A stretch of 33,727 nt of DNA from Thermoleophilaceae bacterium (GCA_030447905.1 JAUJNZ010000010.1:67166-100892), one strand, 5' to 3'; numbered from the stretch's first letter, positions 217 to 18,756 are shown. The notes: generated by a model not told the origin, from the sequence alone. A program made the numbers and translations.

Positions 217-1542
217 ATGGCCCTCTCCGTCCCCCGAGCGCTCACCCGCCGCCTCCCGAGGTCGACCGCGGGTGCCCTCGTGGCCGGCGTCGGCTTTATC
301 GCGCTCGCGACGATTGCCGTGGGCACGATCGTCGTTCTCGGCGGACGCGACATCGGCGCGCCCCTGCCCCCGACGCTGTTTCGCCTCCGCCCCGAGCTGA
401 GCCTCTTCGCCCTGCCGGCGGCGGCCCTGCTGGCCGTCGCCGTGCCCCTCGCCCGGCGGGTCAGCCTGCCGTCGGTCGCGCCCGGGACGTTCGTGCTCAC
501 CGCCCTCGGCCTCGCCCTCGTCCTGCGCTTGGCGCTCAACGCCGCGCGCAACGGCCCATCGGACTGGTGGATCTTCTTCGATCCGCGCTTCGGCGAGGGA
601 ACGGTCGAATACCTCTCGGCGCTGCCCGCGCTCGACTTCGGCGTGCCGCTCTTCCTCGACCGCTTCGCCGAGACCGCCACCGCGCTTCCCGTCCACGCCG
701 TGGGCCACCCGCCCGGACTGCTGAGCGTGGTGGGGGTGCTGGGGATCGAGACCGCGCCCGCCTTTGCGGCGCTCATCATCGCCGCCGGTGTGCTGTGCAC
801 TCCGCTCGTCTACCTGCTCGCCCGCGAGCTGCTCCGAGAGGAGTGGAGCGCGCGAGCGGCGACCCTGCTCTTCGTGTTCGCACCCAACGCGCTCGTCTAC
901 GGCGCGAGTGCCGCCGACGCCCTGTACGCCACGCTCGGCGCGCTCGCCGCCCTCGCCCTCGTGTCGCGACGGCGCCTGGTCCGTCACCTCGCCGGTCCCG
1001 CCGCTCTCGCCCTCGCCACCTTCTTCTCCTACGCCAACCTCGCCGTCGGTGCTTTTGGGGCGCTCGTCGTCTGGCTGCGCGAGGGCTGGCGCCCGGCTCT
1101 GGGTGTGGCCGCGTCCGCTGCCGCGGGACTCGTCGTCGCCTACGTCGCCATGTTCGCCGTCTTCGGGTTCGACATCGTCGGGGCGCTTTCCGCCACCGCG
1201 GATGTCTATCGGGCCAGCATCGCGCGGATTCGCCCCTACTGGTACTTCCTGTTCGGCTCGCCGGTGGCGTGGATGCTCGCGCTCGGGCCGCCGATCGTCC
1301 TCTTCTGGCTGCGCGCGGTGGCCGCCCGCCAAGCTGTGGCGCTCGCCCTCGGCGCCGTGGTCCTGATCAGCTCCCTTGGCGGCTTCACCAAGGCGGAGAC
1401 CGAGCGGATCTGGCTCTTCCTGGTCCCGTTCGCGTGCGTGGCGGCGGCGGCGGTGCTGCCGCGGCGCCGGCTCGTCCCGGTGCTCGGCGCGCTCGCCGTG
1501 CAGGCGTTCCTGATGCAGGTGCTGCTGGGGACGGTGTGGTGA
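217..1542 (+). CDS. Polytopic membrane protein, GT-C glycosyltransferase-like
   Basis: A hydrophobic protein of about 441 residues with roughly ten membrane segments rich in Ala, Leu and Val. After the second or third helix comes a polar extracytoplasmic-looking loop with a DWW..FDPRFGEG stretch, then HAVGHPPG. The His-Pro-Pro-Gly element resembles the loop seen in mannosyltransferase-type GT-C proteins that use polyprenyl-linked sugars, so a lipid-linked sugar transferase is plausible but not proven. An ATG at 97 is also in frame, but the extra 40 residues are Pro/Arg/Asp-rich and look non-coding. I chose ATG 217, just before a basic N-terminus and the first helix; no clear ribosome site is visible for either. 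It stands alone, with a 195-base gap before the heptad-repeat genes. Confidence 0.7.
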   Translation: MALSVPRALTRRLPRSTAGALVAGVGFIALATIAVGTIVVLGGRDIGAPLPPTLFRLRPELSLFALPAAALLAVAVPLARRVSLPSVAPGTFVLTALGLALVLRLALNAARNGPSDWWIFFDPRFGEGTVEYLSALPALDFGVPLFLDRFAETATALPVHAVGHPPGLLSVVGVLGIETAPAFAALIIAAGVLCTPLVYLLARELLREEWSARAATLLFVFAPNALVYGASAADALYATLGALAALALVSRRRLVRHLAGPAALALATFFSYANLAVGAFGALVVWLREGWRPALGVAASAAAGLVVAYVAMFAVFGFDIVGALSATADVYRASIARIRPYWYFLFGSPVAWMLALGPPIVLFWLRAVAARQAVALALGAVVLISSLGGFTKAETERIWLFLVPFACVAAAAVLPRRRLVPVLGALAVQAFLMQVLLGTVW

Positions 1543-1737
1543 GTCACCCGGCTCACGGGTCGGACTGAGACAGCACCCAGGGGGGTCCGACACCGCGCCC
1601 GATCGGGACGAGCGAGTCCTACCGAGGGAACTGCGACCCGATCGTCGAGGGTGTGCCACAATGCCGCCACAGATTGGTTACAGGGAAGTTTCCGACCGGG
1701 GAGCGACGTTGCGAAATCAGGGTCGTAGGGAGTCAGC

Positions 1738-2619
1738 ATGCGGGGGTTGACCGGCTTCAGGGTCTCGAATGCGATCGTGGCGCTCGTCGTCTTGGTGGCG
1801 GCCGGGATCGCTGCGTGGCAGCTCGCGCGGGTTACTTCCGCGGCCCAGTCGATCAGCGGCAAGGCGGAGAACATCTCGCAGACCGGCCGCGGGATCAACG
1901 TCGCCACCGACTCGGTGATCCAGCTCGATCGCACCAACCGCACGGCCACGTCGATCCTCAAGTCCGCCGAGCCGCTCCAACCCAAGCTCAACCGCATCGT
2001 GGGCGAGGCGACAGGCATCGACGGCCTCGCCGGATCGATCAACACCACCGCCGGATCGATCAACAGCTCGGCGGGCACGATCAACAACACCGCCGGCGCG
2101 ATCAACTCGACGGCCGGTGAGATCAACTCGACCGGCGGCGCGATCAACGCGGAGGCCGGTAGGATCAACTCGCTCGCCGGCGACATCGACGGCTCGGCGA
2201 ACGACATCCTGGGCGAAGCCGGAGACATCAACGCGACCGCCGGCGCGATCAACAGCACGGCGGGCGAAATCCAGGGGACGGCGGGCGGTATCAACGGTGA
2301 CGCCGGAGGCATCCTCCGAGAGGCGATCCAGATCGACCGCGACGTCTTCCTGATCAACTTCTTCCTCAACGGCTCGATCGACGTGGCGAACCTGATCAGG
2401 ACCGACACGGCCAACGTCCTCGATTCGGGCATCGCCGCTCACGACACCGCCGCCTGCATCGAGCGCAAGGTCAGCGCCCGATCCGAGCGGGGTAACCTCG
2501 ACGGCGATTGTCGGGGCCGGGGGTCGGACGGCGACTTCGGGCCCGACAACGGACGCGAGAGTGAGGGCACCGCTCGACTCGGCCGCCGGGGCGGCCCCGG
2601 CCCCATGGGAGGGGGATAA
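1738..2619 (+). CDS. Membrane-anchored heptad-repeat protein 1
   Basis: A 293-residue protein of unknown function. Residues 10-30 form one membrane helix after a basic N-terminus (MRGLTGFR), predicting N-in/C-out. From about residue 94 to 205 there are some 15 seven-residue units of the form I-N-x-x-A-G-x. Ile and Ala fall 4 and 3 residues apart, which fits coiled-coil d and a positions, giving an unusually small Ala/Ile core. The only cysteines are C240 and C258, both in the tail, followed by a Gly/Arg-rich end. The start has TAGGGAG a few bases upstream. The next gene begins 2 bases after the stop, so the three related genes 1738-4390 are very likely co-transcribed. A structural or stalk role outside the membrane is inferred from architecture only. 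Confidence 0.85.
   Translation: MRGLTGFRVSNAIVALVVLVAAGIAAWQLARVTSAAQSISGKAENISQTGRGINVATDSVIQLDRTNRTATSILKSAEPLQPKLNRIVGEATGIDGLAGSINTTAGSINSSAGTINNTAGAINSTAGEINSTGGAINAEAGRINSLAGDIDGSANDILGEAGDINATAGAINSTAGEIQGTAGGINGDAGGILREAIQIDRDVFLINFFLNGSIDVANLIRTDTANVLDSGIAAHDTAACIERKVSARSERGNLDGDCRGRGSDGDFGPDNGRESEGTARLGRRGGPGPMGGG
2017..2352 (+). repeat. 21-nt tandem repeat encoding the I-N-x-x-A-G-x heptads
   Basis: About 16 degenerate 21-base units, each beginning ATCAAC or ATCGAC, encode the heptad run of the first repeat protein. Units differ mostly at the two variable codons, so this looks like an old, selected amplification rather than a fresh slippage product. Similar arrays lie in the next two genes. 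Confidence 0.8.
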
Positions 2620-2621
2620 CC

Positions 2622-3530
2622 ATGCAGCCCAGTACGACCGCCCTGAGGTGGATGTGGATCTGGATCACGGTCGCCGCGCTGGTCGTGCTCGTGGTCATCG
2701 GCTTCCTGTTCGGCATCGCTCGCGCCCTCGAGTCGATCGACGCCGCTCTCGCGGAGGCTGACACCGCGGTCTCAGGCGCCGGTGGCGACGTCAAGCCGCT
2801 GCCCGCCCACATCCAGGACATCAACGCGAACCTGCTCGACATCGACACGGCGCTCAAGCCGATCTCCGGGCAGGCGAGCACGATTCGCGGCGAGCTCGGC
2901 TCGATTCGGGGCTCCCTGGGGCGGGTCGACCGATCGCTCGTCGACACGTCGGGATCGCTCGTCGACACCTCGAACTCGCTCGTCGACACCTCGAACTCGC
3001 TCCAGGACACCTCGGGCACGCTCGTCAACACCGAGGGCAGGCTCGAAAGCATCTCCGGCGAGCTCGTCGACATCGATGGAACGCTCAATCGCATCAACGG
3101 CTCGCTCGTCGACACCGACGCCTCGCTCGAGGACACCTCGGGCACGCTCGCGAACGTGACGGGGGGCCTCCGCAGCATCCGCCGCAAGACCGGCCGCATC
3201 GAGCGCCGGCTCATCTTGGCCCAGGACGTCGGCAGCCTGGGCACGAACGGCATCTGGCGGCGTGTCCGGTTCCTCAACGGCGGGTCCTTCGCGGGCGACT
3301 CACGCCGGGCCGCAAGATTTGGCCCGACGCGCATCAACCGCCGGGGCCTGCGCTTCGTCGAGGGCGACGCCGACAACATCCGGCCTCAGCTCGTCCAAGT
3401 GAACCGGCACCTGACGAGCATCTGCCAGCAGCTTCCGGAAGAGACCGGCGACCTTCTGAACCTGCTCCAGAGCGGTGACCTCACTGGGGTACCGGGCCTG
3501 CTGCCCTTGAATTTCCAGGGCCGCTGCTAG
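2622..3530 (+). CDS. Membrane-anchored heptad-repeat protein 2
   Basis: A 302-residue relative of its neighbours. One membrane helix lies at about residues 10-32. Heptads occupy about residues 85-195, with the run from residue 105 reading S-L-V-D-T-S-G/N: Leu replaces Ile, and Asp/Thr/Ser replace Asn/Thr/Ala. Here Leu and Ser/Asp occupy the repeating sites, so the helix is more polar than in proteins 1 and 3. A basic segment (RKTGRIERR) follows, then a tail whose only cysteines are C268 and the very last residue, C302. A GGAGGGGG ribosome site sits just before ATG 2622, which is 2 bases after the upstream stop. Function unknown; co-expression with the flanking paralogs is likely, perhaps forming a hetero-oligomer. 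Confidence 0.85.
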   Translation: MQPSTTALRWMWIWITVAALVVLVVIGFLFGIARALESIDAALAEADTAVSGAGGDVKPLPAHIQDINANLLDIDTALKPISGQASTIRGELGSIRGSLGRVDRSLVDTSGSLVDTSNSLVDTSNSLQDTSGTLVNTEGRLESISGELVDIDGTLNRINGSLVDTDASLEDTSGTLANVTGGLRSIRRKTGRIERRLILAQDVGSLGTNGIWRRVRFLNGGSFAGDSRRAARFGPTRINRRGLRFVEGDADNIRPQLVQVNRHLTSICQQLPEETGDLLNLLQSGDLTGVPGLLPLNFQGRC

Positions 3531-3538
3531 TAGGCGGG

Positions 3539-4390
3539 ATGCGGACGCTAAGGGGAGAACGGGGGCTCGCGCCGGCGCTTCTCGTCGTGATCATCGCCTG
3601 GGCGCTCGCGGCCGTGCTCATGCTCACCGGGACCATCCTCTCCGCCCAGCGGATCGAGGGCGACGTCGGCGCGATCGTCGGCAGCACCTCAGGGATCGAC
3701 GGGGACCTCGACTCGATCCGCCTGGCGGCCAAGACGACCCGGATATCCGCGGACATCCTCACCGCGGCGGAGCCCCTGGTCGGCCAGCTCGACCAGGTGA
3801 TCGTGTCGGCGCGCAGCATCGACCGCCAGGCCCGCTCGATCCTCGACACCGCCAGGTCCATCAACGGAAGAGCCGTGGCAATCAACGCCACCGCGGGCTC
3901 GATCAACACCACCGTGGGCTCGATCAACACCACCGTGAACGCCATCAACGCCAACGCTGGGTCGATCGACGCCAAGACCTCCTCGATCCTGTCGAGGGCG
4001 CGGGGGATCGAGTCGAGGGCCGTGTCGATCAACGCCAACGCCCGGTCGATCAACGGTCGGGTCAACAACATCAACGCCTCGGTCGACTCGATCGACGCGC
4101 GGCTCCGAGGGACGCTCGACGAAGGGCGCACGATCGACCCGGGCGTTGCGGGCATCAACATCCGCGCCAACCGGGTCATCCGCACCGTGCGGCCGGTCAA
4201 GAGCGACTTGAGCAATGTCCTCGACCAGGTCGGCCAGCCCTCGATCAACGGCGGGCACGGTCAGCGGGACGGCGACAAGAGCATCCACGGCCACGCCAAC
4301 GGGATCGACTGCCAGACCGCCTTCCTGCGCAACCTGTCTGGGATTCCGACCACGGGGCCGCCGCCGGGTCAGACCTTCTGCGGGCGGTAA
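3539..4390 (+). CDS. Membrane-anchored heptad-repeat protein 3
   Basis: A 283-residue protein closely parallel to protein 1. It has a basic N-terminus, one membrane helix at about residues 11-33, then a linker with I-L-T-A-A-E-P-L that matches I-L-K-S-A-E-P-L in protein 1 at the same distance from the start. Heptads begin at residue 94, as in protein 1, and run to about 190 with units such as SINTTVG and SINANAR. The only cysteines are C258 and C281 in the tail. Its ATG lies 8 bases after the stop of protein 2. The shared layout (helix, AEPL linker, about 14 heptads, two tail cysteines) makes proteins 1 and 3 clear paralogs. Function unknown; an extracytoplasmic coiled-coil stalk or tether is the simplest reading. 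Confidence 0.85.
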   Translation: MRTLRGERGLAPALLVVIIAWALAAVLMLTGTILSAQRIEGDVGAIVGSTSGIDGDLDSIRLAAKTTRISADILTAAEPLVGQLDQVIVSARSIDRQARSILDTARSINGRAVAINATAGSINTTVGSINTTVNAINANAGSIDAKTSSILSRARGIESRAVSINANARSINGRVNNINASVDSIDARLRGTLDEGRTIDPGVAGINIRANRVIRTVRPVKSDLSNVLDQVGQPSINGGHGQRDGDKSIHGHANGIDCQTAFLRNLSGIPTTGPPPGQTFCGR

Positions 4391-4560: not shown

Positions 4561-5250
4561 AAGGAGTGGGTTCGCGCGGCAGCTTCGAAGCGACCCGGCG
4601 GGAGGAGTCGAAGGGAAACGGGCCAGGCCGCCGAGCCCGATGCCGTGGCTCGGCGAGCAGGTCGTTCAACCCCCTCCTCGAGGCCCGTGCTCCGATCGAT
4701 GAAGTCGCGGACAGCCCATGGCGGCTCCGGCATCGCACGCGAGGGGTACCGACCCGACCAGCAGAGACGCCAGCACCACTTGTCACGAGCAGGTAGGTCG
4801 ACGTCGCCGGTGCCGCCTGCGCGCCTCAACCCCGGCGGTCTTTCGCGAGCGGTGACTGCGCTTGCCGAGCGGGACGTCGACGGGGTCCGCGGCCAGCTCG
4901 TCGAACGTGCTACTCGACAGGCCGGTCGCGAGCCAGCCCTCGGCCCCGAGGGGAGAGGGAAGAAGTTCCGGGGCCGTGCGTCCGCTCGACGGCCGGACTC
5001 GGTAGGTAGTTGGTCCGCATCGGCGACGCGGCCCGCTCTGCCACCCCGCCTGTGCAACGACCCAGCGGCGTCGAGCCGCGCTCTCGCCGCCTACCTCCGG
5101 CGGGTAGGCATTTGAGTTCGGTCAGTTTGGGGCCGGCGCTGTGCGGCGACCGCTGGTCCGCGTCAGGCGTCGCCGGGGGGCGGCGTGCGGACCGAGGATC
5201 GCCCCGGATCCCCTAACCGTCTCCTGCCCCCCGCCACCCCGCCCGACCCC
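4561..5250. other. Gene-poor interval between convergent operons
   Basis: About 690 bases separate the plus-strand heptad-repeat operon from the minus-strand small-membrane-protein operon. Open frames exist on both strands because of the high GC, but their products are Arg/Pro/Ser-rich, with no recognisable domain or ribosome site. I see no tRNA, CRISPR array or insertion sequence. Decayed sequence linked to the PsbP remnant at its left edge is the likeliest content. Confidence 0.5.
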
Positions 5251-5275
5251 CTACCTACCTACCTACCTACCTACC
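5251..5275. repeat. (CTAC)n microsatellite
   Basis: Six perfect CTAC units plus one base. Read on the minus strand it is TAGG repeats that begin exactly at the TAG stop (5273-5271) of the delta-type gene. TAG recurs in every frame of the run, so copy-number change would not extend that protein. Long pure tetranucleotide runs are uncommon in such genomes. Confidence 0.9.
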
Positions 5276-5573
5276 AGCGCGCCTCGGGCCCGGGCCGCGC
5301 CGGCGGCGCGTCCGGGGCCTGCGAGGAGCCCCCGTCGGCTCGCGACCCGACGTCGAGCGCGCCGGCGACCTGCTCGAGCACCTGGTTTACCTCGCGCAGG
5401 CGCGGGCCGATCGGCTCGGTCTGCTTGTCGATCGCCCGCACGCCGAAGGTGACGAGGCCGAGGGTCTTAGAGACCTGGTGGAGGGTCCCGGCGATCGCGA
5501 TCAGGTAGCCGGCCAAGACGACGACCAGCAGGGTGACCTCGACCAGGGTCAGGACGATGAGGACGGTGTTCAC
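5271..5573 (-). CDS. Small single-pass membrane protein, delta type, copy 1
   Basis: 100 residues: a helix at about residues 3-29 (VLIVLTLVEVTLLVVVLAGY), then a helical segment with IDKQTEPIGPRLREVNQVLEQV and a Pro/Ala/Gly-rich tail. It starts at GTG 5573, which overlaps the TGA of the upstream gene (GTGA), with AAAGGAG upstream. It is the last gene of the operon 6589-5271. It resembles the products of 14529-14792 and 16208-16450: same length of helix, an LTVVE-type motif and an acidic/Gln helix containing L-G-P or I-G-P. Function is not known. Position beside the hydrogenase and predicted cytoplasmic tail suggest a scaffold or anchor subunit. Confidence 0.8.
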   Translation of the reverse strand: MNTVLIVLTLVEVTLLVVVLAGYLIAIAGTLHQVSKTLGLVTFGVRAIDKQTEPIGPRLREVNQVLEQVAGALDVGSRADGGSSQAPDAPPARPGPEARW

Positions 5574-5866
5574 GGTCGGCTCCTTTCGGCCGGCGGGCGG
5601 CGGCGCTCGAGCTCTGCGAGCAGCTCGCCCCCCCGCTGCTTGGTGTTGTCGAGCACGTAGGTGGTCGAGGTGTTCTGGGCCAGGCGGGTGCCCATCGTCC
5701 ACAGCACCTCGACTGAGTCTTTGACCTTGACCACGGTCTGGCGCAGCGCCTCGAGCAGCGCGGTGACCACGAGCGCCACCACGAGCCCGACGCCGAGGGT
5801 GATCCACCACAGCGTCTGGTTTTGGGTGATCGCGAGGATCTCCGGCATCGCTTCCGTCGCGCTCAT
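5570..5866 (-). CDS. Small single-pass membrane protein, gamma type, copy 1
   Basis: 98 residues. After a polar N-terminus come TLWWITLGVGLVVALVVTALL (membrane helix, about residues 18-38) and then a charged helical tail with Lys/Arg directly after the helix, predicting N-out/C-in. The ATG overlaps the upstream stop (ATGA), and its own TGA overlaps the next GTG, so translation is coupled on both sides. The WW-I-x-LxVG entry to the helix is shared with 14789-15061 (FWWIALAVG), its likely paralog in the second set. No enzyme motif is visible. Confidence 0.8.
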   Translation of the reverse strand: MSATEAMPEILAITQNQTLWWITLGVGLVVALVVTALLEALRQTVVKVKDSVEVLWTMGTRLAQNTSTTYVLDNTKQRGGELLAELERRRPPAERSRP

Positions 5867-6138
5867 CGCGGGCTCCCTTCGAGCTGCTCGAGGTCGGGGA
5901 CCAGCCGGGGCACGGTGGCGGTGAGCTCGCGGGTGCGCTCGAGCTCGTCGACCCCGTCGAGGTTGCGGGTGATCGCCAGGCCGGCGTCGAGGATGTCGAG
6001 CGAGTAGCGGCGGATCTCTAACACCGGGCGCAGGACCCGGTTGAACAGGCCGACGACGACCCCCAGGATGACGACCCCGAGCACGAGGCCGACGATGGAC
6101 AGGATGGCCCCGGCGGTGGAGACGGCGAGCGGGGTCAT
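5863..6138 (-). CDS. Small single-pass membrane protein, beta type, copy 1
   Basis: 91 residues: helix at about residues 8-32, then NRVLRPVLEIRRYS and a helical tail containing LDGVDELERTREL. The same tail occurs in 16460-16708 (QPALDVKRG, then LGGVDQLQRTREL), making these the clearest paralog pair among the small proteins. Basic residues after the helix predict a cytoplasmic tail. The ATG overlaps the upstream TGA by four bases (ATGA) and the end overlaps the next ATG. The conserved G-V-D-x-L-x-R-T-R-E-L block is a candidate protein-binding surface. Function unknown. Confidence 0.82.
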   Translation of the reverse strand: MTPLAVSTAGAILSIVGLVLGVVILGVVVGLFNRVLRPVLEIRRYSLDILDAGLAITRNLDGVDELERTRELTATVPRLVPDLEQLEGSPR

Positions 6139-6383
6139 CGCTCCTGCTCCTCGCGCGTGCGGGCCAGCCCGCGCGCCGCGCGGTCGACGGCCAGGTTGGT
6201 CCTAGACAGCTCGAACATCGGCGAGGTGCGCTCGCGCGCGGAGTCGAGCGAGCGGGTTATGTCCTTGGCCTGGCCGACGATCCGCAGGCCGAGGCCGATG
6301 ATCATGAGCAGCAGGACGGCGGCGATCACGACGACGAGCGCGCCGACCGACCAGCCGACGATCCACCCGATCTGGACGGCCAC
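6135..6383 (-). CDS. Small single-pass membrane protein, alpha type, copy 1
   Basis: 82 residues from GTG 6383, two bases after the stop of the DUF1059 gene. An N-terminal helix (IGWIVGWSVGALVVVIAAVL onward, about residues 4-35) is followed by a charged helical tail: SLDSARERTSPMFELSRTNL, then a run rich in Arg/Glu. It resembles 15058-15357, which has AFDAARAGTSPLARLEDTRS in the same place. The shared A-R-x-x-T-S-P block identifies the alpha type. N-out/C-in topology is predicted. First of the four overlapping small genes; function unknown. Confidence 0.78.
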   Translation of the reverse strand: MAVQIGWIVGWSVGALVVVIAAVLLLMIIGLGLRIVGQAKDITRSLDSARERTSPMFELSRTNLAVDRAARGLARTREEQER

Positions 6384-6385
6384 GG

Positions 6386-6589
6386 CTATCTGCCTCCGCG
6401 CCGGCCCGAGTCCTCGCGGATCGCGCTGCGCGCGTAGCGCTCGAGGGTCTTTGCCTGGGTGAGGTCGACCCCGTGGCGCTGGCGCGCGTGGGCGACGGCC
6501 TTGGTTACCACCTCGTCCTCGGTCTGCCCGCTGGCCCGAAAGCCACACCCCACAAGCCCGGCATCGCGGCACGTGAAGGTCTTTGCCAT
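6386..6589 (-). CDS. DUF1059 family small protein
   Basis: 67 residues beginning MAKTFTCRDAG. The pattern FTCRDAG..C.F.A.G.TEDEV..KAV.HA...HGVD is the DUF1059 signature: a small soluble protein with two conserved cysteines (here C7 and C15) and a His-containing helix. Two ATGs are adjacent (6592 and 6589). AGGAGGAG lies only 0-2 bases before the first and 5 before the second, so I prefer 6589. It heads the minus-strand operon that diverges from the hydrogenase genes. The family's biochemical role is not established; metal or redox sensing is only a guess from the cysteines. Confidence 0.88.
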   Translation of the reverse strand: MAKTFTCRDAGLVGCGFRASGQTEDEVVTKAVAHARQRHGVDLTQAKTLERYARSAIREDSGRRGGR

Positions 6590-6592
6590 CAT

Positions 6593-6716
6593 CTCCTCCT
6601 AAGCTTTGCTAGGCGGTCTGTACCCGCCTCCTGCCGACTATATGTACCATGCATAGAGCAGCTGTGGGTCAGAGCGACCGGATGCGGTCAAAGCGACAGC
6701 GAAACGAGGGAGCGAA
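6593..6716. promoter_or_regulatory. Divergent promoter region between DUF1059 and hydrogenase operons
   Basis: 124 bases of lower GC than the surroundings, containing an AT-rich core with TATATG and TATAGT (reverse) and the small palindrome ATGCAT near 6650. A ribosome site (GAGGGAG) lies just before ATG 6717. Both the hydrogenase operon and the small-membrane-protein operon must be driven from here, so shared control is likely. I cannot assign exact -35/-10 pairs with confidence. Confidence 0.5.
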
Positions 6717-8153
6717 ATGGGCATTCTAGGGTCAAGAGGTCGCAACGGAGCCAACGGAAGCGCCCCCAAGACGCCCGCCCAGAAGCTCCTCGACGTGCTC
6801 GGGCCGGTCCCCGATCACTCCATCGACCCCGAGCACGTCGGCGACTTCGGCCTGCCCGCCCGCATCGACATGGAGACGCTGCTCGAGCCCCACGCCAAGG
6901 CCGGCCCCGAGTCGCGGATCGGGCCGATCGAGAAAGTGCACGCGTTCTGGTTTGCCGGCATGAGCTGCGACGGCTGCACGGTGGCCGTCTCGGGCGCCGA
7001 GAAGCCCTCGCTCGAGGCCCTGCTTCTGGGCGCCCACCCGGGCCTGCCGCGGGTCATCCTCCACCACCCGGTCGTAAACCTCGAGGCCGGCCCCAACTTC
7101 CTCAAGGCCCACGAGCGGGCGATCAAGGGCGAGCTCGACGCCCCGTATGTGATCATCCTCGAGGGGTCGATCACCGACGAGATCAAGGCGATGGAGACCG
7201 GCGGCTGGTGGGCCGGCCAGGGCGAGATGCCGTGGGGCCCGGGCGGCGCCGAGCGCGCGGTCACCACCAACGAGTGGATCGCCCGCCTGGCCCCCAACGC
7301 CGCCGCGTCGCTTGCGATCGGGACGTGTGCGACCTGGGGCGGCATCCCGTCGGCGGAGGGCAACCCCACCGGCGCCATGAGCCTGATGGACTTCCTCGGC
7401 TCTCGCTACCGCTCAGCGTTCGGGGTCCCCGTCGTCAACGTCCCCGGCTGTGCGCCGATCGGCGACAACTTCTTCGAGACGGTCGCGGCGATCTGCTACT
7501 TCCTGCAGGGCTTTGGCCCGCTGCCCGAGTTCGACGAGCTCGGCCGCCCGGCCTGGCTGTTCGGCGAGACCGTCCACCGCCACTGCGTGCGCGGCGCCTA
7601 CTACGAGGAGGGCGACTACGCCCACGAGTTCGGCGACAAGGAGTGCCTGGTCGAGGTCGGCTGCTGGGGCCCGGTGGTCAACTGCAACATCACCTCCCGC
7701 GGGGCGATCAACCACGTCGGGGGCTGCATGAACGCCGGCGGCGCCTGCATCGGCTGCACGATGCCGGGCTTTCCCGACAAGTTCACGCCCTTCCACAAGA
7801 CCCCGCCGGGGTCCAAGGTCTCGACGATGGCCTCGCGGATGCTCGGCTCGCTCATCCGGCCGATGCGCGAGTACTCAAACGAGCACCTAAACCGCGAGCC
7901 GCGGTGGGACATCCACCACCACACCCCCTCGGGCTTTTCCTCAGAGCGGGAGGAGCCCGGATGGACGCGCGAGATCGGACACCGCTTCTACGACCAGCTG
8001 CGCCGCTCCACCGACACCTCAAAGGGCGACACCGAGGTGTGGGGCAGTCGCAGCCAATGGACCGAGGCAAAGAACCCCGCCCTCGACTCCCACCCTTCGG
8101 GCACACAGAGACCGCCCGAGGAGCGCCAAGTCGGCGGCCAGGCCCCGAGGTAA
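6717..8153 (+). CDS. hhyS: Group 1h [NiFe] hydrogenase small subunit
   Basis: 478 residues. This is the electron-transfer subunit, carrying iron-sulfur clusters from the NiFe site to an acceptor. The proximal-cluster motif is at residues 79-88 (FAGMSCDGCT, C84 and C87). Further ligands appear in GTCATWGG, VPGCAPIGDN, then HRHCVRG and the Cys-rich block VGGCMNAGGACIGCTMPGFP. The N-terminus lacks a twin-Arg signal and the C-terminus lacks a membrane helix, unlike classic group 1 uptake enzymes, so the dimer should stay in the cytoplasm. The Gly/Trp-rich insertion GGWWAGQGEMPWGPGG and a long basic C-terminal tail fit the actinobacterial high-affinity (atmospheric H2) type. Stop and the next ATG are 3 bases apart. 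ATG 6717 is preceded by GAGGGAG. Confidence 0.95.
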   Translation: MGILGSRGRNGANGSAPKTPAQKLLDVLGPVPDHSIDPEHVGDFGLPARIDMETLLEPHAKAGPESRIGPIEKVHAFWFAGMSCDGCTVAVSGAEKPSLEALLLGAHPGLPRVILHHPVVNLEAGPNFLKAHERAIKGELDAPYVIILEGSITDEIKAMETGGWWAGQGEMPWGPGGAERAVTTNEWIARLAPNAAASLAIGTCATWGGIPSAEGNPTGAMSLMDFLGSRYRSAFGVPVVNVPGCAPIGDNFFETVAAICYFLQGFGPLPEFDELGRPAWLFGETVHRHCVRGAYYEEGDYAHEFGDKECLVEVGCWGPVVNCNITSRGAINHVGGCMNAGGACIGCTMPGFPDKFTPFHKTPPGSKVSTMASRMLGSLIRPMREYSNEHLNREPRWDIHHHTPSGFSSEREEPGWTREIGHRFYDQLRRSTDTSKGDTEVWGSRSQWTEAKNPALDSHPSGTQRPPEERQVGGQAPR

Positions 8154-8156
8154 GCC

Positions 8157-10079
8157 ATGTGCTTTAAGACCCTTCCCGTAGAGATCGACTCCGCCGGCAA
8201 CGCGCAGCTGCGCGGGGGCTTTCCCGACCCCTACTCGGTCTCGACCGCCCGCCCCGAGGTCCACATGACCGAGGCCCAGCGCACCGCCCAGATCGAGCGC
8301 CTGGTCGAGCGAAACGGCCACGTCAAGGACCTCAACATGGACCCCGTGACCCGGATCGCCGGGGCGATGGCCATGCACATGACCGCCGACCTGCGCGAGG
8401 GCCGCTACATCCAGGCCCACTCCCAGGCGCCGCTGTTTCGCGGCTATGAGGTCATCCTCATGGGGCGCGACCCGCGCGATGCCACCTACATCGCCTCGCG
8501 GGCGTGTGGGGTCTGCGGGGGCGTGCACGCCCACGCCGCCGCCTACGCGGTCGAGATGGCGCTCGACCTCGCGCCCCCGCCGATGGGCACGATCGTGCGC
8601 AACCTCGGCGAGACGGCCGAGATGGGCTACGACAACCCCCTCCACCTCTACCTGCTCGCCGGGCCCGACTACTCAGAGCCCGTGGTCAAGGCCACAAACC
8701 CAGAGCTGTGGCCGCTGGCCGAGCGCTGGCGCTGTCCCGGGGAACACCGCCACGGCTTTCGCACGATGGCCGACATCATGACCGCGCTCACCCCGCTGAC
8801 CGGCGAGCTCTACCAGGAGGGGATCCAGTTCACCCGCCTGTCGCGCGAGATGTTCGTGCTCTTTCACGGCAAGTACCCCCACCCCCAGACGATCATCCCG
8901 GGCGGGGTGACCTCGACGGTGACCCTCCAGACCCTGAACGAGTACCACGCCCGCCTCGGCGAGATCTTCGACTACGCCCAGCGGATGATGGCGGTCTGGA
9001 ACGACATCCCCGAGTTCTTCTACGCGGCCGACGAGCGCTACAAGGAGGTCGGCAGCCTGCCGATGAACTTCGTCGACACGGGCTTTTGGGACCAGCCCGA
9101 CGCCTACGACGCCTCGTATGCGAACTTCAACCAGTGGGGCGAGCGGCGCTGGTCGACGCCCGGGGCGATGATCGACGGAGAGCTCGTGACCACGCGCATG
9201 TCAGACCTCAACATCGGCTGGGAGGAGTTCGTCGAGCACTCCTACTACGAGGAGTGGACCGACGGCAACGGATCGGGCGACGGGATGCGCTATCAGACCG
9301 ACCCGCTCGGAAACCCCCTGAGCCCCTACCACCCCTGGAACAAGACCACGCTGCCAAAGCCCCAGGAAAAGAGCTTCAAGGACAAGTACAGCTACTCGAC
9401 GGCCCCGCGCTGGGACCGAAACGTCGTCGAGGCCGGAGCCTACGCGCGGCTGTTTTTGACCGCCAAGGCCCAGAAGATGCCGCCCAACGACTTCATCGAG
9501 GCCACCGGCGACGGCATCCGCATGACGATCCCCAAGGGCCGCTCCCCCGAGACCCAGGTGGAGTGGCGGGTCCCCGAGGTCTGGAACGCGTTCGAGCGAA
9601 ACCGCGGGCGCGCCTACCACTACCTGTTCTCCCAGCTCGTCGGGCTCAACAACCTGCTCGAGGCCTACCGGCTGATGCGCCGCGGAGAGACCAAGGTCGC
9701 CCGGCTGAACTCGAGCGAGCTCGACCGCCACGTCCAGAAGGGCGAGGGCATCGGGGCGGGCTTTTGGGGGGCCGGGCGGGGCTGGCTCACCCACCACGCG
9801 GTCATCGAGGGGGGCAAGCTCACCAACTACCAGATCTGCACCCCCTCGACGATCAACGCCTCGCCGCGCGACCCCTGGGGCCAGCCCGGCCCCTACGAGC
9901 AGGCGGTGATGAACACCCCGATCCTCGAGCAGATGCGCGACCCGAGCGAGTTCACCTCCGTCGACATGCTGCGCGCGCTGCGCAGCTTTGACCCCTGCAT
10001 GCCGTGCACCACCCACGTCTCCACCGGCCACGGCAAGGTGGTGCGGGAGGTAAACACCTGCTCCTGCGGGGCCGAGTAG
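8157..10079 (+). CDS. hhyL: Group 1h [NiFe] hydrogenase large subunit
   Basis: 640 residues; holds the NiFe(CN)2CO centre that splits H2. The N-terminal metal motif is RACGVCGGVHAHA (C117, C120) and the C-terminal one is DPCMPCTTH (C614, C617, H620). All four nickel ligands are cysteine, so this is not a NiFeSe enzyme. After H620 a 20-residue extension (VSTGHGKVVREVNTCSCGAE) remains, which family knowledge says is removed by a dedicated endopeptidase; a candidate protease is encoded at 17416-17925. With the adjacent small subunit the best match is the Hhy type used for scavenging trace H2 during starvation. No auxiliary Fe-S electron carrier follows directly, so the electron acceptor is not obvious from this window. 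Confidence 0.96.
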   Translation: MCFKTLPVEIDSAGNAQLRGGFPDPYSVSTARPEVHMTEAQRTAQIERLVERNGHVKDLNMDPVTRIAGAMAMHMTADLREGRYIQAHSQAPLFRGYEVILMGRDPRDATYIASRACGVCGGVHAHAAAYAVEMALDLAPPPMGTIVRNLGETAEMGYDNPLHLYLLAGPDYSEPVVKATNPELWPLAERWRCPGEHRHGFRTMADIMTALTPLTGELYQEGIQFTRLSREMFVLFHGKYPHPQTIIPGGVTSTVTLQTLNEYHARLGEIFDYAQRMMAVWNDIPEFFYAADERYKEVGSLPMNFVDTGFWDQPDAYDASYANFNQWGERRWSTPGAMIDGELVTTRMSDLNIGWEEFVEHSYYEEWTDGNGSGDGMRYQTDPLGNPLSPYHPWNKTTLPKPQEKSFKDKYSYSTAPRWDRNVVEAGAYARLFLTAKAQKMPPNDFIEATGDGIRMTIPKGRSPETQVEWRVPEVWNAFERNRGRAYHYLFSQLVGLNNLLEAYRLMRRGETKVARLNSSELDRHVQKGEGIGAGFWGAGRGWLTHHAVIEGGKLTNYQICTPSTINASPRDPWGQPGPYEQAVMNTPILEQMRDPSEFTSVDMLRALRSFDPCMPCTTHVSTGHGKVVREVNTCSCGAE

Positions 10080-10098
10080 CCAAAGCGCCCGCCCGTCG

Positions 10099-10893
10099 GT
10101 GACGGTCCTCGTCGGCGGGGTCTTCCAGCTCTACCAGGGAGACCTAGACCTCGGGCGCATCGCCGCCCAGCGCCTCTCAGAAGCCGACCTCGGCCCAGGC
10201 GTCTTGGTCGAGGAGCTCGCCTACGGCGCCGTCGCCGTGGTCCAGCGCCTCGAGGAGCTGCGCCCCAAAGCGCTCGTGCTGGTCGGCGCGGCCGAGCGCG
10301 GGCGCGCGCCCGCGACCGTCGAGCGCCGCCGTTATGAGCCCACAGAGCGCGCCGCCCAGGAGGTCCAGGTGGCCGTCGGCGAGGCGGTGGTCGGCTATGT
10401 CTCGATCGACCTCCTGCTCGAGGTGGCCGCGGGGCTTGGGGCCCTGCCCAAGCGCACGGTGGCGATCGAGGTAGAGCCCGCAAGCCAAGAGCCCTCAGAG
10501 ACGCTCTCTGAGCCCGCCCAGGAGGGCCTCGAGCGCGCCTTAGAGCTCGTGGGCGAGGAGGTCCGCCGGGTGCCCGTGCTCGAGCTCTCAGACCAGCTGC
10601 GAGAGCTCGTGGGCGCCCAAGCCGGCGAGTCCGGCGCCGAGCGCGCCCTGTGCGCCCTGCTCTCAGAGCTCGAGGCGGTCGATCGCGAGGGCGGCTGGAA
10701 GAAGACGTTCTCCCTCCGCGAGCGCCTGCGAGAGGAGATCGCCGCCGGCCACACCCCCGAGGGCATGACCGCGCTCGACTGGGGCCTGTGGTGGACCCTG
10801 ATCGAAGAGCTCGACCGCCTCCAGGCCCCCGAGGAGCGGATCGCGACCGAGGCCTCGCCCGACGGCGGCCCCGCGCCGGCGGCGGGCTCCTAG
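10099..10893 (+). CDS. HybD/HycI-like protein lacking the metal ligands (pseudo-protease)
   Basis: 264 residues, GTG start 19 bases after hhyL. Residues 1-150 align by eye with the hydrogenase maturation protease at 17416: VLVGGVFQLYQGDLDLG matches IVVGCVGNVLRGDDGFG, LVLVGAAERG matches LIVVDAVDRG, and YVSIDLLLEVAAGLGALP matches HLATPERVLSMAKGLGCLP. The GN is lost, one Asp of the DD pair is Leu, the Asp of VVDA is Gly, and the His is Tyr, so the nickel-sensing ligands of the family are absent. A helical C-terminal domain of about 100 residues (LRERLREEIAAGHTPEGMTALDWGLWW) is added. It may have become a chaperone or large-subunit holdase. The alignment and the non-catalytic role are inference. 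Confidence 0.75.
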   Translation: MTVLVGGVFQLYQGDLDLGRIAAQRLSEADLGPGVLVEELAYGAVAVVQRLEELRPKALVLVGAAERGRAPATVERRRYEPTERAAQEVQVAVGEAVVGYVSIDLLLEVAAGLGALPKRTVAIEVEPASQEPSETLSEPAQEGLERALELVGEEVRRVPVLELSDQLRELVGAQAGESGAERALCALLSELEAVDREGGWKKTFSLRERLREEIAAGHTPEGMTALDWGLWWTLIEELDRLQAPEERIATEASPDGGPAPAAGS

Positions 10894-10947
10894 GGCCGCG
10901 CGAGCCCTGGGGCGGCGACGTCGGTGCTTAATCTCTCCTCGCCTGGG

Positions 10948-10953
10948 TAGTAT
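10948..10953 (+). promoter_or_regulatory. Candidate -10 box, leaderless promoter
   Basis: TAGTAT ends 6 bases before ATG 10960, the spacing expected if transcription starts at or next to the A of the start codon. A weak TGCTTA lies 17 bases upstream. No ribosome site is present, which fits a leaderless message, common in Actinobacteria. It implies that the next gene can be expressed separately from the hydrogenase. Confidence 0.45.
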
Positions 10954-10959
10954 CGAGCC

Positions 10960-11493: not shown

Positions 11494-11539
11494 CGGGCTA
11501 GGGGGCGGGGGGCGCCCAGCCAGGCGCGCGTTCAGCGCC

Positions 11540-14046: not shown

Positions 14047-14068
14047 CAAAAAAGCCGCCGGGTCGCCC

Positions 14069-14500
14069 CTAGGGCGGGACGACCTCGACCTGGCGATCCC
14101 CCAGGTCGCCGCCGAGCAGCCCGACCAGGACGGCCGCAGCGCCCGACACCAGGTGGAGGAAGTTGTCTGAGGCCAGCTTGCCGTCGATCGACAAAAGCGA
14201 GCCGAGGTTGCCGGTAAAGCCGAGCACGGCGGCGAGCAGGTAGACGAGGCCGCCGCCGATCAGGACCCCCTGGGTGATGGTGGGCTCGCGCACGAGCGAG
14301 ACGCCGATCAGGATCGCCCCGACCCCGAGGTGGACGATGTTGTGAAAGCCGTTTAGGTCGAAGGAGAGCATGTCCTCGCGGGTGTCCACCACCCACCCGG
14401 AAAAGCCCGTGACGGCAAAGCCGATCAGGCCCACGGCCAAGTAGACGATCCCCACCGCCAGGGCGGCGAACTGGGCGGGATGGCGCAGCGGACTGCTCAT
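14069..14500 (-). CDS. DUF4383 four-helix membrane protein
   Basis: 143 residues with four membrane segments: AALAVGIVYLAVGLIGFAV, VHLGVGAILIGVSL, GVLIGGGLVYLLAAVLGF and HLVSGAAAVLVGLLGG. The DLNGFHNIVHLGVG and DNFLHLVSG motifs, each with His just before a helix, fit DUF4383. Family function is unknown. The repeated His at the membrane edge could bind metal or haem, and in this operon a link between hydrogenase and quinone pool is thinkable, but that is speculation. ATG 14500 lies 28 bases from the end of the delta-type gene. Confidence 0.87.
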   Translation of the reverse strand: MSSPLRHPAQFAALAVGIVYLAVGLIGFAVTGFSGWVVDTREDMLSFDLNGFHNIVHLGVGAILIGVSLVREPTITQGVLIGGGLVYLLAAVLGFTGNLGSLLSIDGKLASDNFLHLVSGAAAVLVGLLGGDLGDRQVEVVPP

Positions 14501-14528
14501 CGCCTGACCCTGACCGAGGCGCCCCGCG

Positions 14529-14792
14529 TCATACCCGGGCCGCCCGGGTTGCCTTCTCGGCCACCGGCGCGAGCCCCGAGCGCAGGTCTGAGAGCGCGGT
14601 GTTTACCTCCGCCGCCGCCGGACCGAGGTCGCGCAGGCGCTCCTCGGTGGTCTGGACCCGCACGCTCAGCTGCCCGATGCTGTCGGCGATCGCCCGCAGC
14701 TGGCGGGCGAGGATGACCAGGTACACGGCGAGCACGACGACCAGCAAGAGGATCTCGACGACCGTCAGGACGATGTGGACGACCGCGCTCAT
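14529..14792 (-). CDS. Small single-pass membrane protein, delta type, copy 2
   Basis: 87 residues beginning MSAVVHIVLTVVEILLLVVV, so nearly all of the N-terminal third is one membrane helix. A heptad-like helix follows: ADSIGQLSVRVQTTEERLRDLGP and a tail with ALSDLRSGL. It closely resembles 5271-5573 and 16208-16450. The ATG overlaps the TGA of the gamma gene (ATGA). Basic residues after the helix predict a cytoplasmic tail. No catalytic motif. Confidence 0.82.
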   Translation of the reverse strand: MSAVVHIVLTVVEILLLVVVLAVYLVILARQLRAIADSIGQLSVRVQTTEERLRDLGPAAAEVNTALSDLRSGLAPVAEKATRAARV

Positions 14793-15061
14793 CGGGAGGA
14801 GAGCAGATCGTCGTGGACGCGGATCTCGTCGCGGATGTCGCGCAGGACCGAGGCGGTGGCCCGCAGGTCGCCGGCGGCTGAGCCGTGCTCGATGCGCTCG
14901 GCCATCGCGTCGAGGGCCGCCACGCCGAAGCGGATGTCGTTTAGCAGGCGCGAGAGCAGGGCTAACAAGACGACCACCACCCCGACCACGACGGCCCCGA
15001 CCGCGAGCGCGATCCACCAGAAGGTGGCCTGGCCGGGGTCGAGCATCGTCACCGCCGTCAC
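14789..15061 (-). CDS. Small single-pass membrane protein, gamma type, copy 2
   Basis: About 90 residues from GTG 15061, whose codon overlaps the upstream TGA (GTGA); an internal ATG at 15046 is the alternative start. The helix is entered by FWWIALAVG, as in the gamma protein at 5570-5866. A charged helical tail follows (LLNDIRFGVAALDAMAERIE, then ASVLRDIRDEIRVHDDLL). Coupled by overlap to genes on both sides. A structural membrane role is inferred from architecture. Confidence 0.8.
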   Translation of the reverse strand: MTAVTMLDPGQATFWWIALAVGAVVVGVVVVLLALLSRLLNDIRFGVAALDAMAERIEHGSAAGDLRATASVLRDIRDEIRVHDDLLSSR

Positions 15062-15357
15062 GATCTCGCCCCCGGAAGCGCTGCTCGGGCCGAGCGCATC
15101 GCGTTGAGGACCTCCTGGGCGGCGCTCCTTGTGTCCTCGAGGCGCGCCAGCGGGCTCGTCCCCGCTCTGGCGGCGTCGAAGGCCTCGAGCGCGTCCTCGG
15201 TCTGGTCGCTGATGCGCGAGGCATAGGTGAGGATCAGCGCGACCACGATCACGACCACGACGACGACGGCAAAGCCGATGACGAGGCCCGCCCACCAGCC
15301 CGTATAGGGGTTCTGGGCGGTGTGCGCGGCTAGCGTCTCGATCGTCAACAACGACAA
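15058..15357 (-). CDS. Small single-pass membrane protein, alpha type, copy 2
   Basis: 99 residues if translation starts at TTG 15357, which has AGGAGG 10 bases upstream. GTG 15366 is in frame but sits almost on top of that ribosome site. The sequence has a short polar N-terminus (TAQNPYTGWW), a Val-rich helix (GFAVVVVVVIVVALIL), then ISDQTEDALEAFDAARAGTSP and a helical Arg/Ala tail. The ARxGTSP block matches the alpha protein at 6135-6383. It is the first of three overlapping small genes and follows the PsbP-like gene after about 130 bases. Confidence 0.78.
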   Translation of the reverse strand: MSLLTIETLAAHTAQNPYTGWWAGLVIGFAVVVVVVIVVALILTYASRISDQTEDALEAFDAARAGTSPLARLEDTRSAAQEVLNAMRSARAALPGARS

Positions 15358-15489
15358 GTCAGTCACTCCTCCTCGGCGATCCGCAAAGCCCCGGCGTATC
15401 TCGAGGCCCCGGGGCCCGTCGACGCGATCGCGGCGTTTTGCGTCCTGGCCGGATCTTACTACGGCCGCGGCCTTGGGCAAGCCACCAGA

Positions 15490-16185
15490 TCACCGCCGGG
15501 CGCGAAAGCTCGCGGCGATCCGGTCGAAGTCTGGGGCAAAGCGCTCAAAGCGCCGCTCGGGCAGGGCCTGGAGGACGATCGTGATCAACGTTGAGCCCTG
15601 GAACAGAAAGTAGTGGGAGTGGGTCCCGCGCCGGCGCGTCTTTGGATCGCGGAAGGAGTAGAAGTAGAAGTAGCCGGGCAGGCCGCCGAGCTCGATCCGC
15701 CGCGCCTCGGCCAAGAGCCTCACCTGCTGCCCGGAGGCGACGATCCGGTCGGTGAGGGCCTCGACGTTCTCGAGGTCTGAGCGCCCGACCGGATACCGAA
15801 GCGCGATCGTGCGCACGAGCACCGAGGCGGCCTCGCCTCGGGTGACGAGCAGCTTTACGTCAGAGCGCGGGGTCTCTAGCCGCGCCCAGTCGCTTGGGTA
15901 GTCGATCGAAAAGCGCCCCTGCGGCGCCCAAAAGCGCCTAAAGCCCGCAGCGACGGCGGGCGGTCGGGCGGGGGCCGGCGGCGGCGGCGAGGCCAGCGGC
16001 GGCCTGAGCTCAGAGCCGACGCGGTCGCCCGTGCTCTGGCCACAGACTGCGCCCCGGGCGACCGCGCCCGCCGCGGCGCCCACGGCGGCGGCGGCGAGCC
16101 ACCGGGGCCTCTGTCTCAGGGCGAAGGGAAAGAGCCCGCCGGCGCTTTGGTGGTCTCGATCTCCTCGGCCGCTTGGCAGGCCCAA
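15490..16185 (-). CDS. PsbP-like secreted or membrane-anchored protein
   Basis: About 231 residues. The N-terminus has Arg residues and a hydrophobic run (WLAAAAVGAAAGAVARGAVCG), a signal or anchor, then a Pro-rich linker. The folded domain starts at FRRFWAPQGRFSIDYPSDW and continues with VLVRTIALRYP, LPGYFYFYSF, HSHYFLFQGS and IVLQALPERRFERFAPDFDRIAASF, the pattern of PsbP/DUF1795-type proteins. Such domains are small ligand-binding or assembly modules outside the membrane. The start is uncertain: TTG 16185 is the first in-frame option and no ribosome site is clear. A broken second copy lies at 4444-4560. It splits the second set of small membrane genes in two. Confidence 0.75.
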   Translation of the reverse strand: MGLPSGRGDRDHQSAGGLFPFALRQRPRWLAAAAVGAAAGAVARGAVCGQSTGDRVGSELRPPLASPPPPAPARPPAVAAGFRRFWAPQGRFSIDYPSDWARLETPRSDVKLLVTRGEAASVLVRTIALRYPVGRSDLENVEALTDRIVASGQQVRLLAEARRIELGGLPGYFYFYSFRDPKTRRRGTHSHYFLFQGSTLITIVLQALPERRFERFAPDFDRIAASFRARR

Positions 16186-16207
16186 GGCCGCCCGTCCCTT
16201 GAGCCGG

Positions 16208-16450
16208 CTAGCTTCGGGTTTGGGTAAACCGCTGCAGCGAGCGGCGCAGCTGGTCGAGCTCGAGGCTCAAGGTCTCGATGGCGGGGCCCAGCGCCTCTGA
16301 CCGGGGCCCGACCTGGCCGATCGCCGAGATCACCGCCCGCAGGCGCACGTGGACGCGCTGGAGGATCACGGCGAGCGCGATCAGGTAGGCGGCGAGCACG
16401 AGGATCACCACCACCGCCAAGACGATGCTGACGACGGCGACCGCAGACAT
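16208..16450 (-). CDS. Small single-pass membrane protein, delta type, copy 3
   Basis: 80 residues: MSAVAVVSIVLAVVVILVLA begins a single helix, then RVHVRLRAVISAIGQVGPRSEALGP and LELDQLRRSLQRF. The opening MSAVxxVxIVL and the A-x-x-x-I-G-Q-x helix tie it to 14529-14792. It follows the beta gene after 9 bases. Predicted N-out/C-in. Why three delta copies but two of each other type exist is not apparent. Confidence 0.8.
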   Translation of the reverse strand: MSAVAVVSIVLAVVVILVLAAYLIALAVILQRVHVRLRAVISAIGQVGPRSEALGPAIETLSLELDQLRRSLQRFTQTRS

Positions 16451-16459
16451 AAAAGCGAC

Positions 16460-16708
16460 CTAGCGCAGCCCGTCGAGGGCCTGGCCGTAGCCCTCGAGCT
16501 CGACGGCGACCTCGCGCACGAGCTCGCGCGTCCTCTGCAGCTGATCGACCCCGCCGAGGTGGGCGACCAGCGAGTCGCCGCTTGCGGCGAGCTCGTCGGC
16601 GCCCCGCTTTACGTCGAGGGCCGGCTGGAGCATGCGCGTGAGCAACAGGACGACCACCGGGACGATCACCACCAAGATCACGATGTCGAAGATCCACCAC
16701 AGGATCAT
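16460..16708 (-). CDS. Small single-pass membrane protein, beta type, copy 2
   Basis: 82 residues from ATG 16708: helix at about residues 3-24 (WWIFDIVILVVIVPVVVLLL), then MLQPALDVKRGADEL and a tail with LGGVDQLQRTRELVREV. The tail block is shared with 5863-6138 (LDGVDELERTREL). Its ATG is 7 bases beyond the stop of the lipoprotein gene. The conservation of the tail rather than the helix suggests that the tail contacts a specific partner. Function unknown. Confidence 0.82.
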   Translation of the reverse strand: MILWWIFDIVILVVIVPVVVLLLTRMLQPALDVKRGADELAASGDSLVAHLGGVDQLQRTRELVREVAVELEGYGQALDGLR

Positions 16709-16715
16709 CCCGGGC

Positions 16716-17925: not shown

Positions 17926-17935
17926 GATCGCAGGT

Positions 17936-18752: not shown

Positions 18753-18756
18753 AGAG

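What the first reader, a model, noticed from the sequence alone, without database searches (positions are those of the whole stretch)
1738..4390. Three tandem heptad-repeat stalk proteins with paired tail cysteines
Each protein has one N-terminal helix, 14-16 exact seven-residue units (I-N-x-x-A-G-x or S-L-V-D-T-S-x), and exactly two cysteines, both in the C-terminal tail (240/258, 268/302, 258/281). Heptads start at residue 94 in proteins 1 and 3. The predicted coiled coils are Ala/Ile or Leu/Ser cored and extracytoplasmic. Paired cysteines suggest disulfide-linked tips. I recognise no family.
Basis: partly seen in the sequence, partly recalled or inferred. Interest (0 to 1): 0.75.

Follow-up and report, generated by a model that had tools for sequence, protein, structure and literature searches.

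The report
Length-matched stalk triplet beside H2/CO enzymes
Three neighbouring genes in a soil actinobacterium encode membrane-anchored, rod-like proteins that change length together through evolution, so they probably form one shared stalk, and they sit beside the enzymes these bacteria use to burn hydrogen or carbon monoxide, which suggests an undescribed membrane partner of those enzymes.

Summary
Three tightly packed genes, A (1738-2619), B (2622-3530) and C (3539-4390), each encode one N-terminal transmembrane helix, 14-18 consecutive heptads and two tail cysteines.

The triplet recurs in order in 20 genomes of the phylum. The two cysteines are the only ones after the membrane helix in 58 of 59 orthologues; the exception has the pair plus two more. 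TM-to-cysteine length varies from 140 to 260 residues, yet A, B and C change together (rho 0.96-0.97; phylogenetic contrasts r 0.83-0.88). The Cys-Cys spacing, a control, does not. The simplest reading is one parallel hetero-oligomeric stalk.

The triplet is linked to atmospheric-gas oxidation. At 17 of 18 assessable loci it lies near a [NiFe] hydrogenase or a form I CO dehydrogenase, or next to coxG: 16 within 14 kb, one at 29 kb. Five families of small one-TM proteins and a PsbP-like protein travel with it. No Pfam or NCBIfam model describes A-C or the small proteins.

Best reading: the triplet is the extracytoplasmic part of an undescribed membrane module serving cytosolic H2/CO oxidoreductases. 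Linkage and length-matching are shown by comparison; assembly, disulfides and mechanism are inferred.

The parts
1738..2619 (+). Protein A: TM helix, N-module, 18 heptads (Ile/Ala core), C-module with 'HDTAACIE', Cys240/Cys258
2622..3530 (+). Protein B: TM helix, N-module, 14 heptads (Leu / Thr-Ile core), 'HLTSIC', Cys268 and C-terminal Cys302
3539..4390 (+). Protein C: TM helix, N-module, 14 heptads (Ile/Ala-Val core), 'IHGHANGIDC', Cys258/Cys281
5271..5573 (-). small one-TM protein, family gamma (TM plus short helix; resembles the TM and N-module of B); GTG start
   Evidence: (B profile matches it at G000:C20:72520-72699)
5570..5866 (-). small one-TM protein, family beta
5863..6138 (-). small one-TM protein, family delta
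6135..6572 (-). ORF of a small one-TM protein, family alpha; the TM starts near 6377, exact start codon not settled
6386..6592 (-). DUF1059 protein next to the small-protein set
6717..8153 (+). [NiFe] hydrogenase small subunit, no Tat motif seen at the N-terminus
8157..10079 (+). [NiFe] hydrogenase large subunit
14069..14500 (-). DUF4383 membrane protein, recurrent neighbour of the triplet
14529..14792 (-). small one-TM protein, second gamma-type copy
14789..15046 (-). small one-TM protein, second beta-type copy
15058..15348 (-). small one-TM protein, second alpha-type copy
15490..16185 (-). PsbP-like protein with N-terminal anchor, recurrent neighbour of the triplet
16208..16450 (-). small one-TM protein, family epsilon
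16460..16708 (-). small one-TM protein, second delta-type copy

Best explanation
A, B and C are related single-pass proteins (N-in/C-out) whose long helices run in parallel as one hetero-oligomeric coiled-coil stalk, most simply 1:1:1. The stalk is rooted in the membrane by three TM helices and its far ends are stabilised by the conserved cysteine pairs, probably as disulfides. It is the extracytoplasmic part of a larger membrane module with about five small one-TM proteins (families alpha to epsilon, helices probably cytoplasmic) and a membrane-anchored PsbP-like protein. The module is attached to loci for cytosolic [NiFe] hydrogenase or form I CO dehydrogenase; I infer that it anchors and organises these enzymes at the membrane so that their electrons reach the quinone pool. 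Shown by comparison: conserved gene unit, invariant cysteines, length-matching, linkage to H2/CO loci. Predicted: helical fold, topology. Inferred: hetero-assembly, disulfides, docking and scaffold role.
For: Fixed order A-B-C with 2-8 nt gaps in the window; the triplet recurs in Thermoleophilia and in other classes of the phylum. A and C are clear paralogues (hhalign E 4e-36); A and B weaker (E 5e-8, partly repeat composition). TM-to-Cys1 length: rho AB 0.957, AC 0.970, BC 0.972 over 19-20 genomes; phylogenetic contrasts r 0.88/0.84/0.83, sign-flip p 0.005/0.001/0.0009; the Cys-Cys spacing control shows nothing. Between two genomes of one genus all three shift by 14-16 residues (G004 vs G019). 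Core residues alternate large and small between chains (A/C Ile+Ala, B Leu+Thr/Ile). Cysteines. Topology. Location: hydrogenase near the triplet in G000, G002, G004, G019, G050, G058, G420, G691, G643, G556; CoxL 5-9 kb from a triplet in G054, G256, G348, G031, G512, G580 (form I motif AYRCSFR read in all but G580); coxG on the short contig of G600. Random expectation is 0.4-3% per lineage. Contiguous delta-epsilon-alpha-beta-gamma-A-B-C in a cox operon (L122).
Against: No experiment. Hetero-assembly and stoichiometry were not modelled (no multimer prediction available), and B's single-chain model is poor. In G003 the triplet lies on a 28-kb contig without a hydrogenase match. Many hydrogenase-bearing relatives, e.g. 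G207 and family f7, lack the triplet although f7 keeps the small proteins, so the triplet is not required for hydrogenase function in general. The stalk is predicted on the opposite side of the membrane from the enzymes, so any coupling would have to run through the small proteins. Part of the length and location signal is shared ancestry, and a few contrasts carry much of the A-B correlation (sign-flip p 0.005).
Confidence: 0.5

Rival explanations
1. Cell-wall or surface stalk unrelated to energy metabolism: A-B-C tether or space the cell envelope (peptidoglycan, S-layer or neighbours), and their location next to H2/CO genes is a by-product of conserved gene islands.
For: Extracytoplasmic Ser/Thr/Asn/Gly-rich coiled coils resemble trimeric adhesin stalks in sequence (2wpr match at E 5e-4). 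In G003 the triplet lies on a contig without a hydrogenase match.
Against: The partner changes between hydrogenase and form I CODH in different lineages while the triplet stays within about 14 kb of one of them (or of coxG) at 16 of 18 assessable loci. coxG lies at the head of the same gene run in G512 and G600. No wall-binding or adhesion domain found.
Confidence: 0.25
2. Quinone or lipid conduit: A-B-C (with the small proteins) form a tube or ring that handles menaquinone or lipid for the oxidoreductase, as the helical needles of MCE transporters or the HucM tube do.
For: Hydrogenase (Huc) and CODH reach menaquinone through dedicated membrane partners, HucM and CoxG (PMC10017518; PMC13240472). 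A and B match the helical region of TIGR00996 MCE weakly (E 6e-4 and 8e-4, below cut-off).
Against: No MlaD/MCE domain. The core has only two apolar positions per heptad (Ile/Ala, Leu/Thr), which suits a solid small bundle rather than a wide tube. The stalk is predicted on the outer face, away from the cytosolic enzymes.
Confidence: 0.15
3. Redox-sensing rods: the three conserved cysteine pairs switch between thiol and disulfide at the outer face and report envelope redox state to the small cytoplasmic-side proteins.
For: Two cysteines and no others after the TM in 58 of 59 proteins; conserved context around Cys1 (TAACI, HLTSIC, HANSIDC).
Against: No signalling domain in the proteins; a plain structural disulfide explains the same conservation. 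Cys-Cys spacing is loose (7-42 residues).
Confidence: 0.05

Closest known systems
HucM (stalk/scaffold subunit of the M. smegmatis hydrogenase Huc; PMC10017518)
   Same: A helical coiled-coil component encoded with a trace-gas hydrogenase and linking it to the membrane
   Different: HucM is described as peripherally membrane-associated, a tetramer of one chain, on the same side as the enzyme; A-B-C have a TM helix, are predicted outside, are three different chains, have conserved tail Cys pairs, and also occur with CODH
CoxG (menaquinone-binding partner of form I CODH; Pfam PF06240)
   Same: A membrane partner of CODH; a coxG gene lies in the same gene run in G512 and G600
   Different: CoxG is a START-like lipid-binding domain; A-B-C are coiled coils with no such domain
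Actinobacterial MCE proteins (MceA-F; TIGR00996, PF02470)
   Same: Several paralogous single-TM proteins in one operon with long extracytoplasmic helices, forming a hetero-oligomer (from general knowledge)
   Different: No MCE (MlaD) domain, no YrbE permease found in the cluster, three instead of six chains
Trimeric autotransporter adhesin stalks (e.g. PDB 2wpr)
   Same: Extracellular Ser/Thr/Asn-rich heptad coiled coils
   Different: No head and no C-terminal YadA-type anchor; anchored by an N-terminal TM helix; three different chains

Membership tests
MCE family (Mce/MlaD) | MlaD/MCE beta domain (PF02470) after the TM helix | tested here: not met
   no PF02470 match for A, B or C; only a sub-threshold TIGR00996 match in the helical region
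MCE family (Mce/MlaD) | operon with YrbE/MlaE permease genes | tested here: inconclusive
   none among the ORFs annotated in the window and related loci, but not every neighbouring ORF was annotated
HucM | membrane-peripheral tetramer of one chain without TM helix | tested here: not met
   each of A, B, C has a strong N-terminal TM helix; HucM description from PMC10017518
HucM | encoded in a trace-gas hydrogenase gene cluster | tested here: met
   near a [NiFe] hydrogenase in ten genomes; others are next to CODH instead
CoxG | PF06240 COXG domain | tested here: not met
   (no match in A-C); CoxG is a separate neighbouring gene
Trimeric autotransporter adhesin | C-terminal YadA-type anchor domain | tested here: not met
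   no such domain among matches; C-termini are short Cys-containing tails
Parallel hetero-oligomeric coiled coil (structural class) | continuous heptads with apolar core, helical | tested here: met
   for A; B model low confidence; C by sequence only
Parallel hetero-oligomeric coiled coil (structural class) | physical A-B-C assembly | not testable with these tools
   only indirect: length covariation, tight gene order, complementary core residues
Disulfide-linked tip | two conserved cysteines oxidised in vivo | tested here: inconclusive
   the pair is present in 59 of 59 proteins; oxidation state not testable here

The most novel reading that the evidence does not exclude
A-B-C plus the five small one-TM families and the PsbP-like protein form one undescribed membrane complex that serves as a shared docking and electron/quinone interface for two unrelated atmospheric-gas oxidisers, [NiFe] hydrogenase and form I CO dehydrogenase, and carries a length-matched heteromeric stalk on the outer face.
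Probability: 0.3. Interest if true: 0.85.

Novelty: categorically new. Interest (0 to 1): 0.62.

Why it matters
How soil actinobacteria connect cytosolic hydrogenases and CO dehydrogenases to the respiratory chain is known for only a few enzymes (HucM for Huc, CoxG for CODH). A conserved membrane module found beside both enzyme types would offer concrete candidate genes for this coupling in lineages that live on atmospheric H2 and CO. Separately, the length covariation of three related helices is sequence-only evidence for a heteromeric coiled coil that can be tested directly.

Tried and rejected
Pfam and NCBIfam scans of A-C gave only coiled-coil noise below cut-off, and the small proteins matched nothing above cut-off (DUF1059 aside). 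The high-scoring antisense ORF 1236-2432 (-) was rejected as a repeat artefact because orthology and gene order are on the + strand. Misassembly as the cause of the triplet-hydrogenase adjacency was considered, because contig C2 of the same genome duplicates window 4932-19698 at 99.9%; it was rejected because G002 contig C211 shows the same order: end of B, C, small proteins, hydrogenase. 'Triplet = hydrogenase subunit' was rejected because G580 and G600 have the triplet and a close CoxL homologue but no hydrogenase match. MCE, HucM, CoxG and adhesin membership were rejected on domain content (see membership test). A first run of the length contrasts mis-anchored A in G002/G003 and was repeated with a corrected anchor; the conclusion did not change. 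Literature searches for coiled-coil or membrane partners of hydrogenase/CODH found only HucM; the CoxG paper of Kropp et al. 2025 is not held and is cited only through PMC13240472. Foldseek searches were not run: a single long helix would give meaningless matches.

Full report
OBSERVATION. Each has one N-terminal TM helix, then heptads, then a tail with two cysteines at the stated positions. The longest exact 7-spaced runs are 18 Ile (A, from residue 87), 14 Leu (B, from 92) and 14 Ile (C, from 94); 5000 shuffles of each sequence never exceed 5-6. Heptad columns are Ile at 1 and Ala at 5 in A; Ile and Ala/Val in C; Leu at 1 and Thr/Ile at 4 in B.

WHAT THE HOMOLOGUES SAY. The window belongs to a Thermoleophilia/Solirubrobacterales genome: the nearest named relatives are MAGs of that group. 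The ordered triplet is found in 14 genomes of the order, counting G002 and G374 where contig ends cut it, and in six genomes of other classes of the phylum (G691, G643, G556, G600, G512, G580). Counting cysteines after the TM in 59 proteins (20 A, 20 B, 19 C), 58 have exactly two, in the same two places; C of G691 has the pair plus two more. In B the second cysteine is the last residue in 16 of 20 genomes. Conserved contexts are TAACI or similar (A), HLxSIC (B) and GHANSIDC (C). A and C are clear paralogues (hhalign 4e-36); A-B is weaker (5e-8). The strict heptads are an elaboration of Thermoleophilia; orthologues in the other classes have shorter helices but the same TM, flanking modules and cysteines.

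LENGTH-MATCHING. I measured the distance from the end of the TM helix to the first tail cysteine. It ranges over 140-218 (A), 155-260 (B) and 141-244 residues (C), and the three lengths covary: Spearman 0.957 (AB), 0.970 (AC), 0.972 (BC). On a tree of the conserved modules, phylogenetically independent contrasts give r = 0.88, 0.84, 0.83 (sign-flip p 0.005, 0.001, 0.0009), still 0.73-0.84 after dropping the two most influential contrasts. The Cys-Cys spacing, measured in the same proteins, shows no covariation (r -0.06, 0.16, 0.14). Between the congeners G004 and G019 the three chains differ by 14, 15 and 16 residues, i.e. about two heptads each. This is what parallel chains of one bundle must do, and independent homo-oligomeric stalks need not. 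It is indirect evidence. A fixed membrane-to-target distance that three separate stalks must all span would give the same signal; hetero-assembly is the simpler reading because of the 2-8 nt gene spacing and the complementary core residues.

STRUCTURE AND TOPOLOGY. AlphaFold2 on A with four orthologues gives one continuous helix 80-229 (pLDDT about 75-93 for most of it) after the TM helix, and a disordered tail. B is predicted helical (62-200) but with low confidence (mean 46), so its model carries little weight. C was not folded. No beta-solenoid was predicted. The TM flanks are more positive on the N side and neutral or acidic on the C side for B and mostly for C; for A the bias within 15 residues is weak, though N-terminal extensions in some relatives carry more basic residues. 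N-in/C-out is therefore a prediction. The small partner proteins mostly have uncharged or acidic N-termini and basic C-side flanks, suggesting N-out/C-in.

NEIGHBOURHOOD. Downstream lie small one-TM genes on the - strand (5271-6592) and a [NiFe] hydrogenase (6717-8153, 8157-10079). A second small-protein set with a PsbP-like gene and DUF4383 lies at 14069-16708. The small-protein families, which I call alpha to epsilon, recur beside the triplet or the hydrogenase. In L122 (G512) eight genes are contiguous, delta-epsilon-alpha-beta-gamma-A-B-C, preceded by a CoxG-domain gene and followed by a MobA-like gene, inside a cox locus with CoxL (AYRCSFR, form I) and CoxS. Hydrogenase is near the triplet in G000, G002, G004, G019, G050, G420 and, at 29 kb, G058; and, in other classes, 5-6 kb away in G691, G643 and G556. 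A CoxL lies 5-9 kb from a triplet in G054, G256, G348, G031, G512 and G580; the form I motif was read directly in all but G580, whose CoxL is 77% identical to that of G512. In G580 the nearer triplet copy looks degenerate and the intact one is about 14 kb away. G600 has coxG on the same 7-kb contig. Not assessable: G346 and G374 (contigs under 9 kb). Exception: G003, whose 28-kb contig shows no hydrogenase match. That makes 17 of 18 assessable loci. With 1-4 such enzyme loci per genome, a random gene would lie this close with probability 0.004-0.03 per lineage; the lineages are not independent, so I do not multiply them. The change of partner enzyme between lineages argues that the linkage is functional rather than inherited position.

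MECHANISM. Best-supported reading: a heteromeric extracytoplasmic stalk (A-B-C) attached to a membrane module of small one-TM proteins, serving cytosolic H2 or CO oxidoreductases by anchoring and organising them. The small proteins are the part more tightly tied to the hydrogenase: family f7 genomes keep them next to the enzyme without A-C. Shown: sequence conservation, gene linkage, length-matching. Predicted: helix, topology. Inferred: assembly, disulfides, role. At about 0.15 nm per residue, the helix would reach 20-35 nm from the membrane (inference).

KNOWN SYSTEMS. HucM shows that a trace-gas hydrogenase can hang on a coiled-coil stalk (PMC10017518), and CoxG that CODH uses a membrane quinone partner (PMC13240472). 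A-C share neither domain nor predicted topology with these, nor do they meet the domain tests for MCE proteins or trimeric adhesins. Within Pfam, NCBIfam and the open literature searched the module is undescribed; subscription papers and preprints were not searchable, so 'new' means new to these sources. The hydrogenase subgroup (perhaps 1l) was not determined.

CAUTIONS. The own genome is fragmented and carries a second, 99.9% identical copy of window 4932-19698 on contig C2, which may be a strain variant or assembly redundancy. Hydrogenase and CODH matches in relatives were made by sequence similarity, and some MAGs are only 72-88% complete.

Noticed in passing
window 4932-19698: Contig C2 of the same genome carries a 99.9% identical copy (with about 2 kb, window 11513-13507, absent there), ending near 4932; the triplet is not duplicated. 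Strain variant or assembly redundancy.
   Followed up: partly
window 17323-20621: Hydrogenase maturation protease (HycI) and several MinD/NifH-like ATPases plus a PadR-like ORF, conserved near hydrogenases in many relatives.
   Followed up: partly
window 22609-23433 and 24035-25825: Two proteins with DM13 'electron transfer' domains near the hydrogenase island; role unknown.
   Followed up: no
window 28789-31425: 878-aa protein with BNR repeats and a CWB2 cell-wall binding domain.
   Followed up: no
L075, L076, L077, L079: Family f7 genomes have the small one-TM set and a DUF1059 gene directly beside the hydrogenase but no A-B-C triplet.
   Followed up: partly
L123 17675-19375: Second, apparently degenerate or frame-shifted A-B-C copy in G580, about 5 kb from its CoxL gene.
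   Followed up: no
L027 about 8150: B orthologue with an apparent frameshift around a short duplicated stretch; probably an assembly error.
   Followed up: no
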